Shown here piece after piece: positions 5,694 through 16,591 of a stretch of DNA of 19,846 bases. The stretch spans positions 1 through 19,846 of the forward strand of contig JAHENP010000141.1 of assembly GCA_018609965.1 (NCBI GenBank), given 5' to 3'. The DNA comes from Haloferacaceae archaeon. GTDB taxonomy: Archaea; Halobacteriota; Halobacteria; Halobacteriales; Haloferacaceae. Below the pieces are notes generated by a model, which did no database searches, was not told the origin of the DNA, and saw nothing but the letters and a program-made list of their open reading frames with translations. How positions within the stretch are numbered: position 1 is the first letter of the stretch; every line of letters begins with the position of its first letter. The position numbers were made by a program, and so were the translations under genes.

Positions 5694-6902
5694 TCAGTCG
5701 GCCGAGTCGAGTGTTGTCTGTCGCGCGAACCCTGCGTCCGTCGCCTGTGGGTCGAACTCACAGAGCGGGCGTGCGCCGGACCGGAGTCTGTGGATACGCT
5801 TCCGGTTCTCGCGTGTCAGCATCTTGTCGAACACGTCTCTCCGGAGGTAGTAGCCGACAGCCTCGGCGAGATACGGCGGGACGGCGTTGCCGATCTGGCG
5901 GCGAACGGAGACGAGCCCGCCGCTGAACCGGTAGTCGTCCGGGAACGTCTGGAGTCGTGCGCCCTCACGCGGCGTGAGCCCACGATCCTCGAACGGGTGG
6001 ATACACCGTGCGCTCGACGGCTTGGACATGTTGGAGGTGATCGCAACCGCCGGTTCCGTCGAGTCGAGCCGCGAGTAGGAGTTGTGGTACCCCGAGGACG
6101 GCTGTAGCCCCTCGGGAATCGCCGTCCGGTCACCGCCGTCGGGAACGTGTGAGATCATCTCGACCATCTCGTCGGTGTGGTTCGCGGCGACGTGTGCCGA
6201 CAGCTCCGTCGCGTCACCCCGCAAGTCAGCCTGGAGCGCAGTCTCGGGGTGGGTGGTGTAGTCGGTCACCGCCTCGCCCGGTGTGACGGCTGGAAGATCA
6301 CCGATTCCGTCTGTGACCCCGGGGGTCGCGACCGGGTCGAGTGTGAACCCGTCGAACGGGTTCTCCGACACGTCCGACTTGGCGGCCAACACGAGGAGCC
6401 GCCGGCGGTGTTGTGGGACACCAAACTCCGAGGCCCTGACCACGCGGTGAGTCACGTCGTAGTCGAGCCGGCCGAACGACGCCGTGACGGCGTCGAGAAA
6501 CGCCCCGTCGGCGGTCTGTTGCATCCCGCGGACGTTCTCGAACAACACCGCCGTCGGATCGAGCGCCCTGACCCAATCGACGAACTGCTCGAACAGGTGG
6601 TTGCGCTCGTCGGAGCCGTCCGGACTGATCACCTCCGAGAACCCCTGACATGGCGGGCCGCCGACGACGAGGTCGACACGGTCGCGGCCGACGACCGCCG
6701 GAATCTCGGCTTGCGGCACCTCGCGGATGTCCCCCGAGAGGGCTTCGACTGTGAGCCCGTCGCGGTTGTTCGCGAACGTCTGGCGCGCGTCCTCGTCCAC
6801 CTCGACGGCGTGGACCAACTCGAACCCCGCCCGTTCGAGCCCGGCCGACAGCCCGCCTGCGCCCGCGAACAAGTCGACGTAGCTCAACCCTCGCCTGCAC
6901 AT
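5694..6902 (-). CDS. DNA (cytosine-5-)-methyltransferase, orphan
   Basis: This enzyme transfers methyl from S-adenosylmethionine to C5 of cytosine in a specific duplex DNA site. The 402 residues carry the ordered m5C motifs: motif I DLFAGAGGLSAGLERAGF from residue 10, motif IV GGPPCQGFSE with catalytic Cys85, motif VI ENVRGM at 122-127, motif VIII QHRRRLL at 164-170, motif IX LTPREGARLQTFP, and motif X QIGNAVPP. The target-recognition region between VIII and IX is about 130 residues, so a single recognition site is likely; the site cannot be read from sequence. The ATG at 6902 has a weak AT-rich element (GAAATAG, about 6929-6936) upstream. No endonuclease or Vsr-like gene flanks it; the neighbours are rimI (tail-to-tail) and the divergent DUF5810-like gene. 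It is probably a solitary methylase. Confidence 0.93.
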   Translation of the reverse strand: MCRRGLSYVDLFAGAGGLSAGLERAGFELVHAVEVDEDARQTFANNRDGLTVEALSGDIREVPQAEIPAVVGRDRVDLVVGGPPCQGFSEVISPDGSDERNHLFEQFVDWVRALDPTAVLFENVRGMQQTADGAFLDAVTASFGRLDYDVTHRVVRASEFGVPQHRRRLLVLAAKSDVSENPFDGFTLDPVATPGVTDGIGDLPAVTPGEAVTDYTTHPETALQADLRGDATELSAHVAANHTDEMVEMISHVPDGGDRTAIPEGLQPSSGYHNSYSRLDSTEPAVAITSNMSKPSSARCIHPFEDRGLTPREGARLQTFPDDYRFSGGLVSVRRQIGNAVPPYLAEAVGYYLRRDVFDKMLTRENRKRIHRLRSGARPLCEFDPQATDAGFARQTTLDSAD

Positions 6903-10065: not shown

Positions 10066-11037
10066 GTGCGGGTGACAGTCGTCGGTGCGGGCTACGTCGG
10101 GCTGGCGTTGTGTTGCCAACTCGACGCCGCGGGCCACGACGTGACCGGCGTTCGGCGCTCCCCCCAACCCGTTCGTGAGGTGGGGATCGACGCCGTCGCG
10201 GCGGACGTGACAGAGCCAGCCGAGCTGACCGCGCTGCCGGACGCCGACGCGGTCGTGTTCGCCGCCAGCAGCGGCGGGCGTGGGGCGGAGCCGGCACGGC
10301 GCGTGTTCGTCGACGGACTCCGGAACACGATCGACGCGTACGCCGACCGCGCGTCCCCGCCGGATCGGCTCGTCTACACCTCCAGCACCGGCGTGTACGG
10401 CGACCACGACGGCGCGTGGGTCGACGAGACGACCCCGCTTGACCCACAGACGGAGAAGACGGCGGTGTTGGCCGAGGCGGAACGGGTCGCGACGGAGACG
10501 GCCGGCGACGCCGGGATCGACGGCACCGTCGCGCGGTTCGCCGGGCTGTACGGCCCCGACCGCTACCGGCTGGAACGGTACGTGGAGGGGCCGGTCACGC
10601 AGGGGTATCTCAACATGGTCCACCGGGACGACGCCGCCGGCGCGGTGCGGTTCCTCCTCACCGGGGCGTCACCGACCGACGGGTCACGGTCCGAGTCGGG
10701 TGACGCGTCAGGGTCGAACAACGAGAGAGTCGACGGACCACGGTCGTCGCCGACCGACCACGCTCGGGGTGAGGTGGTGACGGTCGTCGACGACGAACCG
10801 GTCGAGAAGTGGACGTTCGCCGACTGGCTCGCCGACGAGTGCGGGGTCGCCCGGCCGGAGAAACGGACGAAAGCAGAACGCATCGCGGCCGGTGATCTGT
10901 CTGCGGCCGCTCGCCGTCGGATTCAGACGAGCAAACGGGTCGACAACACGACACTCCGGGAGTTGGGCTACTCGTTCCGGTTCCCGACGTTCCGGGAGGG
11001 GTACCGCGCCGCGGTTGAGGCGTACACCGACGCCTGA
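10066..11037 (+). CDS. SDR-family NAD(P)-dependent epimerase/dehydratase-like protein
   Basis: An extended short-chain dehydrogenase-like protein with an N-terminal Rossmann fold: GAGYVGLAL (7-15) is the nucleotide-binding glycine loop, and YTSSTGVYGD (104-113) is the usual Ser/Tyr active-site strand. The Tyr is at 111, but position +4 is Gly rather than the catalytic Lys, so ordinary dehydrogenase chemistry is doubtful. The family resembles YeeZ-type SDRs of COG0451. Residues about 202-235 are a Ser/Asp/Gly-rich insertion that splits LLTGAS from the VVTVVDDEP strand. The C-terminal YSFRFPTFREGYRA is typical of this subgroup. The GTG start at 10066, 2 nt after the DUF5791-like stop, gives a first residue immediately before the Rossmann strand. 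The substrate is unknown. Confidence 0.85.
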   Translation: MRVTVVGAGYVGLALCCQLDAAGHDVTGVRRSPQPVREVGIDAVAADVTEPAELTALPDADAVVFAASSGGRGAEPARRVFVDGLRNTIDAYADRASPPDRLVYTSSTGVYGDHDGAWVDETTPLDPQTEKTAVLAEAERVATETAGDAGIDGTVARFAGLYGPDRYRLERYVEGPVTQGYLNMVHRDDAAGAVRFLLTGASPTDGSRSESGDASGSNNERVDGPRSSPTDHARGEVVTVVDDEPVEKWTFADWLADECGVARPEKRTKAERIAAGDLSAAARRRIQTSKRVDNTTLRELGYSFRFPTFREGYRAAVEAYTDA

Positions 11038-11164
11038 CGCCCACCCGGAAACTGGCGTCCGCGCGGGCACACGACGAACGTCGAAATCCCCGGCGAATCC
11101 GGCGCCGTCGGGCGATTGAACGGTCTCGTACATTCTTGTGTCTCGGTCCACTCCGCCAGTACGT

Positions 11165-12441: not shown

Positions 12442-13059
12442 TCACTCCGGGCCGGCGTAGCCCGTCACGCCGAAGTCGGTGGTCGCCTCGGTGTCCGTGT
12501 CGTCGGCGGGAGCATCGCTCTCGTTGGCGGCGCCTGCATCGTCGCCGGCGTTGTCGCGAGCCGCGTGCTCGCCGTCGTCACCGGCGCCGTCGTCGTGAAC
12601 CGTACGCTCGTCGTCGTCGCGAGCCGCACGCTCGTCGTACCGCCCCCAGTCCTCCCACGTCGGGGTCTCGACGACCGTGAACAGGAGGTTGATCAGGACG
12701 TTCGTCGCCTTCGCTTGCTCCGTCTCCGTCACCTCGTAGGCCGCGCCGGTGCCGGTCGCGCCCGGCACCGCGTTCGTGAGGTTGCGATCCTCGGGCACGG
12801 GAACGACCTGCGCCGCCTGTACGTCCGCGAGCGCCTCCGTGACGGTGCGCAACAACTGCTGGAGCTGGCCTGCCGACGCGGCGCCCTCCGCGGCGAGCGT
12901 GGCGCGCACTTCCTCGATGCGCACGCGCATCTCGTCGGTGCGGTAGCTCGGAAGTGGTTGCTCCTCGATGTCCAGGAGAAACTCCTCGTACGTTGCTGCA
13001 AGCTCCGCTGCGTCTGTCGTGCCGTCAGGTTTTACTGACGGTGAATCGTTCGAACACAT
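12442..13059 (-). CDS. Hypothetical acidic haloarchaeal protein
   Basis: I do not recognise this family. The 205-residue product has a helical, ordered-looking part (about 15-135) beginning AAELAATYEEFLLDIEEQ and including LQQLLRTVTEALADVQAAQ. A hydrophobic segment ATNVLINLLFTVVETPTWEDWGRY comes near its end (about 117-140). A disordered Asp/Ala/Glu tail finishes the protein. There is no signal peptide, clear transmembrane helix or cysteine motif. Base composition and amino-acid bias match the window, so the frame is probably real. The ATG at 13059 is followed at codons 6-13 by a 7-bp perfect hairpin, and three more short hairpins lie just upstream. The most TATA-like element, TTTACT, is about 105 nt upstream, so the leader may be structured. 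Confidence 0.7.
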   Translation of the reverse strand: MCSNDSPSVKPDGTTDAAELAATYEEFLLDIEEQPLPSYRTDEMRVRIEEVRATLAAEGAASAGQLQQLLRTVTEALADVQAAQVVPVPEDRNLTNAVPGATGTGAAYEVTETEQAKATNVLINLLFTVVETPTWEDWGRYDERAARDDDERTVHDDGAGDDGEHAARDNAGDDAGAANESDAPADDTDTEATTDFGVTGYAGPE

Positions 13060-13758: not shown

Positions 13759-15117
13759 TCAGTCGGCGCCGAGTTCCTCAAGCGTCACGTCGGCACCGAG
13801 CATCCGGAGGTAGGTCTCGTCGCCAGTGACACGAGCGAGGTCTTCGCAGAGTTCCTGTAGCTCGTCGTGGTCCCAGTCGTCGAGATACTCGCGGCGCGAG
13901 CCACCCTGCTCGTAGACATCTCTGAGGAGATGTGCGCGGTCGAGCGTCGTCGCGGTGGTGTCGGGGGTCTCGACGGCCTCTTTCGCGTGGGCTTGGCGAT
14001 CCTCGTCGCGCCAGTCGCGGAGTTCGAGCCCAGTGGCGTCAGTGTCGAGCAACTCCATCTCTTCCATCCGGTCTTGGGTCGCGTCGGCGCGTCGGAGGAG
14101 TTTGTTGAGGTCGTCCGTGGTAGCGCTCCGTTGTTCGAGCAAGTCGAGATACACGTCCGTCTCGCCGAGATCGGCGTCTTGGATGATGCCGTAGATCTGG
14201 TCGACGACTTCCTTCGCCTCCATGATCTCGCCGGCGCGGTGGACCTTCCCGTGGTGCTTCGAGTACTCTTGGAAACACTTCCCCATCTCGATCACGCCGA
14301 TGTCGCCAGAGGCGAGGTCGCGGTTCTCTTCGAGTGTCTCGCGCGTCTCGCGTGCCGTGCGGACGATGTTGCGCCGGAGTGTTCGCCACGAGGTCGGTTC
14401 GCGGTCGTCTGTGGGGCGGGCGACGATCACGATGTCGAATGAAACTGCGTCGCCGCCGATGAACTTGTTCAGGTCCGAACTGATCGGGTACGTTGCTGTG
14501 ATCTCGAAATCGTTCTGACAGAGGGAAGTGAGCAACTCGCCCCAACTCTCGGAATCGCTGTGGTGGTAGGTGAATGCGAGCACGCCGTCGTCTTTCAGTG
14601 CTCTGCGGATAACCGAGAGCGCCTCGCCAATCTCATGTTCGAAGTCCGCCTCGGTCTTGTCGAGGTACGGGTTCGTGACGATGGACTCTGCGCGTGGGGT
14701 CTTGTCGTACTGGAACTCCTCGTACTCGTCTTCGAGGAGGATTTTCTGCCAGACGTAGAAGTAGTCGGCAACCTCGCTGTAGATGATGTTGTCGTAGTAC
14801 GGTGGGTCTGTGATCACCGCGTCGTATTCGCCCTCGGCATCAATATTCCGCATATCCCCTTGGACGACGGTAGAGTGGCTTCCAATCGACATAGAGAATT
14901 CATCCGACTCAACTGTTTCACCGTCCTCAACGTACCGGTCTGTCGGGGCGTTGGCATATTTGACAGATCTGAGTGTCATCTCCCACATCGCTTCGAATGT
15001 TCCAGTTCCGTACTCTGTTCCCCAAACATTCCCTTCCATTGGGCCGTTCGGCGGATCAAAAGAATTAGATTTGAATATATTTGTATTTTTGTTGTACGCT
15101 GGATTGTATACGCTCAT
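13759..15117 (-). CDS. COG1743-type adenine-specific DNA methylase, C-terminal half (split by in-frame TAA)
   Basis: This is the catalytic C-terminal half of a large N6-adenine (or N4-cytosine) DNA methylase. The 452 residues contain the amino-methyltransferase motif IV as DPPYYDNIIYSE (104-115), preceded by VVQGDMRN, and LAFTYHHSDSESWGELL further on. It lacks motif I and the Zn-ribbon, which are encoded by the gene immediately upstream. The ATG at 15117 abuts the upstream TAA in the same frame, so translation could restart there, or the ATG is only an internal Met of a broken 884-codon gene. Its first 30 codons lie in a very AT-rich patch. The C-terminal 130 residues are charged and helical. 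If both halves are made they could pair into an active enzyme; alone this half should not bind S-adenosylmethionine normally. Confidence 0.85.
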   Translation of the reverse strand: MSVYNPAYNKNTNIFKSNSFDPPNGPMEGNVWGTEYGTGTFEAMWEMTLRSVKYANAPTDRYVEDGETVESDEFSMSIGSHSTVVQGDMRNIDAEGEYDAVITDPPYYDNIIYSEVADYFYVWQKILLEDEYEEFQYDKTPRAESIVTNPYLDKTEADFEHEIGEALSVIRRALKDDGVLAFTYHHSDSESWGELLTSLCQNDFEITATYPISSDLNKFIGGDAVSFDIVIVARPTDDREPTSWRTLRRNIVRTARETRETLEENRDLASGDIGVIEMGKCFQEYSKHHGKVHRAGEIMEAKEVVDQIYGIIQDADLGETDVYLDLLEQRSATTDDLNKLLRRADATQDRMEEMELLDTDATGLELRDWRDEDRQAHAKEAVETPDTTATTLDRAHLLRDVYEQGGSRREYLDDWDHDELQELCEDLARVTGDETYLRMLGADVTLEELGAD

Positions 15118-15120
15118 TTA
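15118..15120 (-). other. In-frame TAA interrupting the methylase gene
   Basis: On the minus strand the junction reads AAC AGT TAA ATG AGC GTA, that is N-S-stop-M-S-V, with no frame change. One sense codon here would restore a single 884-residue reading frame of normal COG1743 length. A single-base change such as AAA to TAA, or a sequencing error, would explain it. Confidence 0.9.
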
Positions 15121-16413
15121 ACTGTTATAATTAAGAGATTCTGAGAGAGTCAATAGAAGAAACTCTTTCACAACATTAGTACGAGTGGATTTGATAGACT
15201 TTATAATTTTTGCTAGAGAAAGAATCTGTCGATTATTAAACATATCCGTCCACTTTTCGTAATCGTGTTGGAACACGTCGTTCCCACTGAGCGACGATGC
15301 AGCAGTGATGGCACCCTCTGGAATCTCCTCACTCGGCACGTACTCGTGGAGATCAGTCCGCTCGTCCCACTCATCGACAGCTTTCTGATACAGTCGTTCG
15401 TCCGCAATCTCCGCCCGCTTGTACCCCTTGTAAACAGATTTCGCCTCACCCACATCCTCACACTCCTCGCAGTAGTACTCGACCGCGTACAGTCGCTCGT
15501 CGGGTTTCCCCTGCTCGGCGATGGCGTCCGTAATCCCCTCTTTCTGCCCACACTCGGGACAGTTGTAGTACCCACCACGCGAGACGTGCCCCTCTGACGC
15601 GTCGAACGTCGCGAAACACTCCGTACACGTCGACTCCTCCGCTTGCCAGTCATCCACCAGCGTCACCGCGCCACAGTCCGGGCAGAGAACGTTGTATTTG
15701 TCGTCGTTCTCGTAGCGCCCGGCGGCGACGCGGTAGTCCTTGAACAACGGCACGGTGTGGCCACACGACGTACAGTCGAGTTCCTTCACCCAGAAGTTGT
15801 ACATCACGTCCGCGTCGTGGTCCCCGTTCGGACACGGCGTCTTGTAGTACTGCGTGATCTCGTCGGCCACGTCGTCACGAACCCGTTCGAACGCCCGCTC
15901 CAGTTCCTCGACATCCGTCTCGCCAGCTTCGAGTTCCTTTTTCGTCACGAACCACGCGACGGGGTTGAGGTCGTACCCCTCCGACTCGACGCCGAACCGC
16001 GAGGCCTCGACCAGCGAGGTGCCACCCCCCGCGAACGGGTCGAGGATTTTGGTGTCCTCCGGCAGGCGCACGTCCTTGGGGTAGAACTCCCACAGCGACT
16101 CGGGGTTGTCCATGTCCACGTCCGCGGCGGCGTCGAGCAACTCCGTCGCCGAGTGGCCGTTCGTCCCGAGCGTCTGGTTCTCGCCGGGTTCGTACACCGC
16201 CAGCTCCTCCGGGTCAGTGTCCTCGTCGAGCAGTGAGTAGAGTGTGATCGCGCGGAACAAGCAACCGGGGCGGCGCGCCCACCACTTGTGCATCGTGTAG
16301 ATCGGGCGATACCACTGTTTCGCGCGGCTCTCTTTGGCGGCAATCTCGTTGACACGCTCGATGGGAAAGCCGCGCTCGATGGGGCGTTCCGTCCGCTCGG
16401 CGTTGTCTGTCAT
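15118..16413 (-). CDS. COG1743-type adenine-specific DNA methylase, N-terminal half (DUF1156 + Zn-ribbons)
   Basis: This is the S-adenosylmethionine-binding half of a COG1743 DNA methylase. From ATG 16413 it has 431 residues. The N-terminal DUF1156-like block ends in HKWWARRPG (42-50). Motif I is DPFAGGGTSLVEASRFG (125-141), followed by NPVAWFVTKKEL. A long insert then carries several zinc knuckles (CTSCGH, CPDCGA, CTECFA, CPECGQ, CEECED). It ends LSESLNYNS at the TAA where the other half begins. ATG 16413 is chosen over 16494 because it precedes PIERGFPIERVNEIA, the usual family start, and has CTTATC 27 nt upstream. The last 40 or so codons fall in the AT-rich patch. COG1743 enzymes occur in phage-defence loci such as type 3 BREX (PglXI), but no partner is visible here. 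Confidence 0.88.
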   Translation of the reverse strand: MTDNAERTERPIERGFPIERVNEIAAKESRAKQWYRPIYTMHKWWARRPGCLFRAITLYSLLDEDTDPEELAVYEPGENQTLGTNGHSATELLDAAADVDMDNPESLWEFYPKDVRLPEDTKILDPFAGGGTSLVEASRFGVESEGYDLNPVAWFVTKKELEAGETDVEELERAFERVRDDVADEITQYYKTPCPNGDHDADVMYNFWVKELDCTSCGHTVPLFKDYRVAAGRYENDDKYNVLCPDCGAVTLVDDWQAEESTCTECFATFDASEGHVSRGGYYNCPECGQKEGITDAIAEQGKPDERLYAVEYYCEECEDVGEAKSVYKGYKRAEIADERLYQKAVDEWDERTDLHEYVPSEEIPEGAITAASSLSGNDVFQHDYEKWTDMFNNRQILSLAKIIKSIKSTRTNVVKEFLLLTLSESLNYNS

Positions 16414-16437: not shown

Positions 16438-16443
16438 GATAAG
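16438..16443 (-). promoter_or_regulatory. TATA-like box of the split methylase
   Basis: CTTATC on the minus strand is centred 27-28 nt before ATG 16413, which is ideal leaderless spacing. It supports transcription of the locus and the shorter start. Confidence 0.55.
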
Positions 16444-16515
16444 TTCCCGTGTCTGTGCCTTGATCGTGTGCAGGGACGACGAGACGACCCGCACGACGTT
16501 CGCGCCGTGACGGGT

Positions 16516-16591
16516 TCAGAGTCGGGTCGTGTCCTCAGAGTCGGGTCGTGTCCTCAGAGTCGGATCGCGTCCTCAGAGGCGGTTCACGTCC
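16516..16591 (-). repeat. Four 19-bp tandem units at and beyond the 3' end of hom
   Basis: Four contiguous 19-bp units lie at 16516-16534, 16535-16553, 16554-16572 and 16573-16591. In the minus-strand reading the first (16591-16573) is the last 19 nt of hom including its TGA. The next differs at four positions, and the last two are identical to each other. Each unit ends in TGA. The array therefore looks like outward tandem duplication of the gene's 3' end into the spacer before the methylase promoter. Confidence 0.9.

What the first reader, a model, noticed from the sequence alone, without database searches (positions are those of the whole stretch)
13759..16413. COG1743 DNA methylase cut into two same-frame halves by a single TAA directly followed by ATG
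Seen: the minus-strand frame runs from ATG 16413 to TAA 15118-15120, then immediately resumes at ATG 15117 in the same frame to 13759. Motif I (DPFAGGG) is only in the first half and motif IV (DPPYYD) only in the second, so neither half alone is a complete methylase. Together they have 884 codons, normal for COG1743. Either the gene is freshly inactivated or misread by one base, or TAAATG acts as a stop-restart site producing a two-subunit enzyme. Both halves otherwise have intact frames, which argues against an old pseudogene. The promoter is intact.
Basis: partly seen in the sequence, partly recalled or inferred. Interest (0 to 1): 0.7.

Follow-up and report, generated by a model that had tools for sequence, protein, structure and literature searches.

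The report
Nonsense-split haloarchaeal DUF1156 DNA methylase copy
A salt-loving archaeon carries a DNA-methylating defence gene that a single stop codon cuts in two inside its most changeable, target-reading part; the relatives examined carry the gene whole at that point, so this copy is most likely freshly broken rather than a new two-part enzyme.

Summary
One minus-strand frame holds a DUF1156/COG1743 methylase (HmaB-like, the methylase of DUF499-centred BREX-related systems), interrupted only by TAA 15118-15120 directly before ATG 15117. Relatives give no support for a conserved two-subunit gene: 45 of 45 full-length haloarchaeal loci lack a stop, and 158 of 158 other rows of a wider, partly redundant alignment have a sense residue there. 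The following Met is an ordinary family residue (117 of 158), so the ATG most likely predates the stop. The rest looks intact: 1 of 227 near-invariant columns violated. The stop lies in the least conserved block, a predicted loop of the target-recognition insert. That insert is a module of other descent: the shells group with an intact paralogue in the same MAG, the insert with another genome's gene. No DUF499 gene was found in this 74%-complete MAG, against 14 of 14 chosen relatives. Best reading: a stray methylase copy recently inactivated by a nonsense codon. Assembly error, or a working pair made by termination-reinitiation at TAAATG, cannot be excluded.

The parts
15118..16413 (-). First half of the methylase (431 aa + TAA): DUF1156 domain, AdoMet motif I, Cys-pair (zinc-ribbon-like) region, start of the variable recognition zone
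   Evidence: DUF1156 43.2 bits (cut-off 24)
13759..15117 (-). Second half (452 aa): rest of the recognition zone, DPPY catalytic motif, C-terminal helical part
   Evidence: HmaB profile E 5.5e-20
15118..15120 (-). In-frame TAA; column filled by sense residues in all 158 other aligned rows
15115..15117 (-). ATG abutting the stop; same column is Met in 26 of 49 and 117 of 158 other rows
14824..15216 (-). Variable AT-rich target-recognition zone (residues 400-530 with the stop counted), phylogenetically a different module from the flanks
16021..16041 (-). Motif I, DPFAGGG
14791..14808 (-). Motif IV, DPPYYD
16439..16452 (-). Upstream box ACACGGGAACTTAT 26-39 nt before the start codon, identical in C240 and C270 and with 1-2 changes in the C240 mini copy and L015; fits a leaderless haloarchaeal promoter (inference)

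Best explanation
This is an extra, probably orphan copy of the DUF1156 adenine methylase (HmaB) of haloarchaeal DUF499-centred BREX-related defence systems. An intact enzyme would bind AdoMet with motif I, read a DNA motif with an insert lodged inside its Rossmann core, and methylate adenine with DPPY (inferred from family and model). The family is modular: a conserved shell, and a recognition zone that changes by exchange and divergence. This copy has the shell of its own genome's paralogue and a recognition zone of another lineage (shown by trees). It was later hit by a nonsense codon in that least conserved zone (shown as sequence; its reality in the cell is inferred). Translation stops before the catalytic motif, so the copy is most likely inactive, recently so (inferred). 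The ATG after the stop is most likely a pre-existing family Met and may at most allow weak reinitiation.
For: Only one lesion, with both frames otherwise open. Intact paralogue C240 in the same MAG. Of 51 haloarchaeal loci 45 are full length and none of these 45 has a stop; of the other six, L038 and L062 have stops and four are partial. Stop column: 14 kinds of sense residue in 158 rows. 1 of 227 near-invariant columns violated. dN/dS of split against C240 is 0.16 (N shell) and 0.075 (C shell), so constraint lasted until recently. Modular origin: FastTree pairs split with C240 in both shells (0.925, 0.983) but with L015 in the recognition zone (0.992); AU test rejects split+C240 in that zone, p 1.4e-5, and split+L015 in the C shell, p 0.0095. 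No DUF499 match in this MAG against 14 of 14 chosen relatives. By my count rows at 50% identity or more and not at a contig edge, 7 of 44 copies are broken, in various ways, so decay of copies is common. Of 222 database fragments and relatives, only the window's own N half ends at this column.
Against: The stop sits exactly before an ATG (chance 1.8-4.6%) and in a loop, as a viable split would. Near-absence of decay also fits a still functional pair. The AU test does not reject split+L015 in the N shell (p 0.224), and its groups were named after seeing the trees, so its p values are optimistic. Absence of DUF499 is weak, since the MAG is 74% complete in 361 contigs, so orphan status is not proved. 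NCBIfam's DUF1156_antiphage model matches far below its cut-off (143.2 of 1000 bits for C240).
Confidence: 0.7

Rival explanations
1. Stop-restart two-polypeptide methylase: ribosomes end at TAA and restart at the abutting ATG, and the halves assemble into one active enzyme.
For: Distance 0 nt lies in the -8 to +10 nt range that the authors treat as predictive of coupling (PMC10666635 passages); a Shine-Dalgarno motif is not essential for reinitiation in H. volcanii (PMC6728339 passages). The break falls in the predicted loop 440-444 between a helix and a hairpin. Near-invariant columns are kept.
Against: No examined relative has it: 0 of 45 full-length loci, sense residue in 158 of 158 rows. 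The split divides the Rossmann core: strands before the insert are in half 1, strands after it in half 2. No Shine-Dalgarno-like stretch before the ATG (by eye); removing the motif cost about 20-80% of reinitiation in 6 of 7 H. volcanii pairs. The ATG is an inherited family Met. An intact paralogue is present.
Confidence: 0.12
2. Sequence or assembly error: the living cell has a sense codon, or the contig is a chimera of two paralogues.
For: The window is from a 361-contig MAG with several similar copies, some cut at contig ends (C270, C185, C54), where assemblers may mix paralogues.
Against: No other broken gene was evident by eye among the window's main ORFs. A gene with the same recognition-zone type, also AT-rich, exists whole in another MAG of the same genus (L015), so the mosaic need not be an artefact.
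Confidence: 0.15
3. Stop codon read through or recoded so that a full-length enzyme is made.
For: The frame is open on both sides of the TAA.
Against: I recall no recoding signal of the form TAA-ATG. No Rfam family reaches its gathering score in the window. The column is variable and not catalytic.
Confidence: 0.03

Closest known systems
HmaB, the DUF1156 N6-adenine methylase of Hma / DUF499-centred BREX-related (BR) systems (PMC12839542, passages read)
   Same: DUF1156 N-terminus, motif I then DPPY, a large recognition insert between Rossmann strands with invariant Cys pairs, HmaB profile matches. Same-genus G160 has two close copies on one replicon, one beside a DUF499 ATPase.
   Different: The window gene is cut by a stop, no DUF499 ATPase was found in its MAG, and it sits among unrelated chromosomal genes.
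BrxXI, the methylase of Type-3 BREX (same paper, passages)
   Same: Recognition domain embedded in the methylase core, with a four-Cys finger, as that paper describes.
   Different: Has another N-terminal element instead of DUF1156 per that paper; the PglXI profile hit here is weaker than HmaB (1.5e-14 against 4.8e-39 for C240).
Natural or engineered two-piece DNA methylases (M.AquI, M.EcoHK31I: recalled; split M.SssI, PMC3404938: start of abstract in listing)
   Same: Two chains that together would hold all motifs.
   Different: Those are C5-cytosine enzymes (recalled, M.SssI also per listing); here no relative examined is split at this point and no activity is known.
Recognition-domain change in restriction-modification specificity genes (HsdS domain movement, PMC3077401: start of abstract in listing)
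   Same: Variable recognition module with a history different from the conserved part.
   Different: Here it is inside a BREX-related methylase shared among paralogues and haloarchaeal species; active switching within a cell was not tested.

Membership tests
HmaB / BR-system DUF1156 methylase | N-terminal DUF1156 domain | tested here: met
   PF06634 43.2 bits against cut-off 24 in half 1
HmaB / BR-system DUF1156 methylase | N6-methylase core with motif I and DPPY, insert embedded in the Rossmann core | tested here: met
HmaB / BR-system DUF1156 methylase | Sequence match to curated HmaB / anti-phage DUF1156 models | tested here: inconclusive
   PADLOC HmaB E 3e-18 and 5.5e-20 for the halves, 4.8e-39 for C240; but NCBIfam NF042963 is far below its cut-off (143.2 against 1000 bits for C240)
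HmaB / BR-system DUF1156 methylase | DUF499 ATPase and helicase in the locus | tested here: not met
   No DUF499 match in own MAG (14 of 14 chosen relatives have one); none seen among window genes. MAG only 74% complete. Helicase not searched genome-wide.
HmaB / BR-system DUF1156 methylase | One uninterrupted reading frame | tested here: not met
   TAA at 15118-15120
Natural two-subunit DNA methylase | Split conserved among relatives | tested here: not met
   0 of 45 full-length loci; sense residue in 158 of 158 other rows; of 222 database proteins only the window's own N half ends at the column
Natural two-subunit DNA methylase | Both chains made and jointly active | not testable with these tools
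   needs proteomics and methylome data
Methylases with exchangeable recognition domains | Recognition zone has a history different from the shell | tested here: met
   (AU p 1.4e-5 for the zone; 0.0095 C shell; 0.224 N shell, not rejected; groups named); zone identity nearly independent of shell identity (12090 pairs, r 0.285)
Phase-variable / switching methylase loci | Active recombination between expressed and silent copies in one population | not tested
   needs reads or strains

The most novel reading that the evidence does not exclude
TAAATG works as a stop-restart junction in a haloarchaeon: one mRNA yields two polypeptides that assemble into a BREX-related methylase cut inside its recognition insert, giving a first natural two-chain DUF1156 enzyme and a possible route to mixing recognition halves among the genome's paralogues.
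Probability: 0.12. Interest if true: 0.6.

Novelty: new member of a known kind. Interest (0 to 1): 0.3.

Why it matters
As a split gene it is probably an ordinary recent pseudogene. What may outlast that is the mosaic: DUF1156 methylases of haloarchaea keep a conserved shell while the recognition zone varies almost independently, across species and among copies in one genome. That suggests how these poorly studied defence methylases change the DNA motif they mark, and it can be tested by methylome sequencing of isolates with near-identical shells.

Tried and rejected
Conserved split: not supported. No examined relative shares the in-frame stop. The only other long 'stop inside' hit, G116:C6, was its natural end.

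Database C-terminal proteins that begin at the stop column or the next one (P0004, P0011, P0014, P0020, P0027, P0055, P0110) looked at first like independent splits. As a control, 82 of the 222 listed hits start with Met beyond residue 200, and they pile up just as much at other conserved Mets (10 at residue 479, 8 at 204, 7 at 521, 7 at 595, 7 at 432-433), so this site is nothing special. Only the window's own N half (P0121) ends at this column; P0136 ends 6 columns before it, P0158 and P0163 7 columns after. The lists are capped (120 of 272 and 120 of 303 hits), and the DNA of these proteins was not fetched, so contig ends or frameshifts upstream are inferred.

AT-rich patch as a foreign insert unique to this gene: rejected. 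In 50 rows mean third-position GC is 0.51 in the recognition zone against 0.62 and 0.68 in the shells. Recognition-zone dS is saturated in most pairs, so no dN/dS of the split copy was read there.

PDB fold search: Foldseek had no match at E 0.001 or below; the VIA-align rows shown were other AdoMet enzymes, mostly methylases. No BREX methylase was listed; inconclusive. Rfam (gathering threshold) and tRNA scans of the window: nothing.

Rows left out: 6 of 51 haloarchaeal loci (L038, L057, L060, L061, L062, L088: partial or frameshifted) were not aligned; the 25 bacterial loci were not examined for stops. The AU trees used 23 of 50 rows. In one search the 106 full-length proteins (840 aa or more) among the newly listed hits and 3 partial ones were added; loci and proteins overlap, so rows are not independent, and these proteins came from a search with an L015 recognition zone, which favours that type. 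The 14 relatives were picked by me from the 58 other genomes with a methylase match.

Full report
Observation. The minus-strand frame 16413-13759 is open but for one TAA at 15118-15120, followed at once by ATG 15117. Half 1 (431 aa) carries DUF1156 above the Pfam gathering score, motif I and Cys pairs; half 2 (452 aa) carries DPPYYD. Each half matches a different part of the same PADLOC HmaB profile.

Where it lies. The window is contig C141 of a 2.6 Mb, 361-contig, 74%-complete MAG. The same MAG holds an intact 904-aa copy (C240, 82-83% identical), a 5' piece of a third copy at a contig end (C270), a deleted mini copy (C240:10834-11145) and two further partial matches at contig ends (C185 at 57-59% and C54 at 36-37% identity). 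Within the first 580 nt, the window copy is 94% identical to C270 and 88% to C240; a box ACACGGGAACTTAT stands 26-39 nt before the start codon in the window copy, C240 and C270, with one or two changes in the mini copy and L015. The promoter region therefore looks intact; that transcripts are leaderless is inference.

Is the split shared? A scan of genome contigs gave 76 loci, 51 of them haloarchaeal. Of these, 45 read full length without a stop; L057, L060, L061 and L088 are partial without a stop; L038 and L062 have stops. Of 170 genomes of the family, 59 (own included) have a match; by my count of the rows at 50% identity or more and not at a contig edge, 7 of 44 copies are broken or truncated, in various ways: the window, G145:C27, G042:C5:86590, G077:C4:16035 (interrupted by about 0.7 kb), G116:C17, G132:C17 and G118:C95. 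G116:C6, flagged with a TAA, simply ends there. In a 159-row alignment the stop column holds 14 kinds of sense residue in the 158 others, and the next column is Met in 117. The ATG after the stop is therefore most likely older than the stop. Seven database C-terminal fragments start at this Met, but fragments start as often at other conserved Mets, and no N-terminal fragment other than the window's own ends here among 222 proteins.

How recent? Of 227 near-invariant columns in 50 rows the split copy violates one (Y809H, stop counted); of the other 49 rows all but two (G160c 44, L059 25) violate 0-7. dN/dS between split and C240 is 0.16 and 0.075 in the two shells. Constraint thus held until lately, or still holds. 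These data cannot tell those two apart.

What the stop sits in. The predicted structure of the intact paralogue (mean pLDDT 85.7, pTM 0.82) shows a Rossmann core interrupted by a long insert, the architecture described for BR-system methylases (PMC12839542, passages). The stop column is residue 442 of that model, in the loop 440-444 between helix 423-439 and a hairpin, in the least conserved 20-residue block of the protein (0.38 mean pairwise identity). Half 1 keeps the core strands before the insert, half 2 those after it. PDB matches to the Rossmann core span both.

A module of other origin. Between split and C240, blocks of 100 aligned nt share 74-95 outside the zone and 45-56 in columns 1200-1600. 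Trees of the shells pair split with C240 (FastTree supports 0.925 N, 0.983 C); the tree of residues 400-530 pairs split with L015 (0.992), and C240 with G160a (0.995). L015's MAG matches G161, a same-genus genome, by contig coordinates. With 23 rows the AU test rejects split+C240 in the recognition zone (p 1.4e-5) and split+L015 in the C shell (p 0.0095), but not split+L015 in the N shell (p 0.224); the groups were named after the trees. Over 12090 pairs of full-length rows, recognition-zone identity has a median of 0.51-0.59 in every shell-identity bin from 0.55 to 0.95 (0.40-0.44 below that; 0.97 in the 4 pairs above; r 0.285), and 266 of the 950 pairs with shell identity of 0.80 or more have zone identity under 0.5. 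Exchange or rapid divergence of the recognition zone is thus a family habit. Low GC there is family-wide too (third-position GC 0.51 against 0.62 and 0.68).

System context. 14 of 14 chosen relatives have a DUF499 ATPase match, and in each at least one lies on the same contig within about 7 kb of a methylase match (searches compared); this MAG gave none. In same-genus G160 the ATPase is flanked by two methylase copies (79% and 46% identical to C240), with a third (70-73%) about 7 kb beyond. The window copy stands among gyrase, dnaJ-like, primase and homoserine dehydrogenase-like genes (names by recall translations). The blocks on its two sides lie apart and in opposite relative orientation in G160 (C1 609-619 kb and 581-583 kb) and in G159 (C1 1011-1016 kb and 949-951 kb), so it sits at or near a rearrangement breakpoint. 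Orphan status is likely but not proved, given MAG incompleteness.

Mechanism. Best reading: a stray HmaB-type copy, built of a local shell and a recognition zone of another lineage, whose translation now ends before the catalytic motif; inactive. Reinitiation is physically possible: in H. volcanii coupling is strong at overlaps and very short distances, the authors treat -8 to +10 nt as predictive (PMC10666635, passages), and a Shine-Dalgarno motif is helpful but not essential (PMC6728339, passages). The gap here is 0 nt. A random stop in this gene has ATG next in 16 of 884 cases, so the coincidence is mild, not strong, evidence for the two-chain reading.

Literature. The rows listed by the searches (open-access library only, lists capped) show no title or abstract start about a split DUF1156 methylase. 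The text of PMC6471742 on haloarchaeal methylases holds neither COG1743 nor DUF1156 (term search).

Verdict. A well observed, real feature of the assembly; most likely an ordinary recent nonsense lesion (or error) in a modular defence methylase family. Interest is moderate, mainly for the mosaic.

Noticed in passing
window 12442-13059 (-): 205-aa protein without a Pfam match belongs to a dispersed amplified family: 21 matches in this MAG, 10 in G160, 8 in G159, none in G161, many of them weak. It lies downstream of methylase copies in the window, of the mini copy in C240 and in G160:C2.
   Followed up: partly
L010 (C240) 10834-11145 (+): Mini methylase of 103 codons matching residues 1-73 and the last 40 (overlapping ends), with an upstream box differing at two bases: an internal deletion of most of the gene.
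   Followed up: partly
window 16497-16591: Imperfect 19-bp tandem repeat just upstream of the methylase (four overlapping 38-nt copies at 19-nt spacing).
   Followed up: no
L014 and L015: Two methylase paralogues of one MAG are identical at DNA level over about 125 alignment columns in the N shell but have different recognition zones: looks like gene conversion, or assembly mixing.
   Followed up: partly
L141 (G077:C4:15800-19600): Another methylase copy interrupted by about 0.7 kb of sequence with stops in this frame, probably a small mobile insertion; nature not determined.
   Followed up: partly
G160:C2, also G044:C5, G042:C5, G077:C4, G128:C20: Several haloarchaeal loci carry two or more methylase matches on one contig with a DUF499 ATPase match between or beside them, perhaps one per strand of a non-palindromic site (the last part is speculation).
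   Followed up: no
window 5694-6902 (-): A second DNA methylase of cytosine type (best PADLOC type II methylase E 3e-100, also DruM cytosine methylase) stands in the same window; I saw no restriction enzyme beside it by eye but did not search for one.
   Followed up: no
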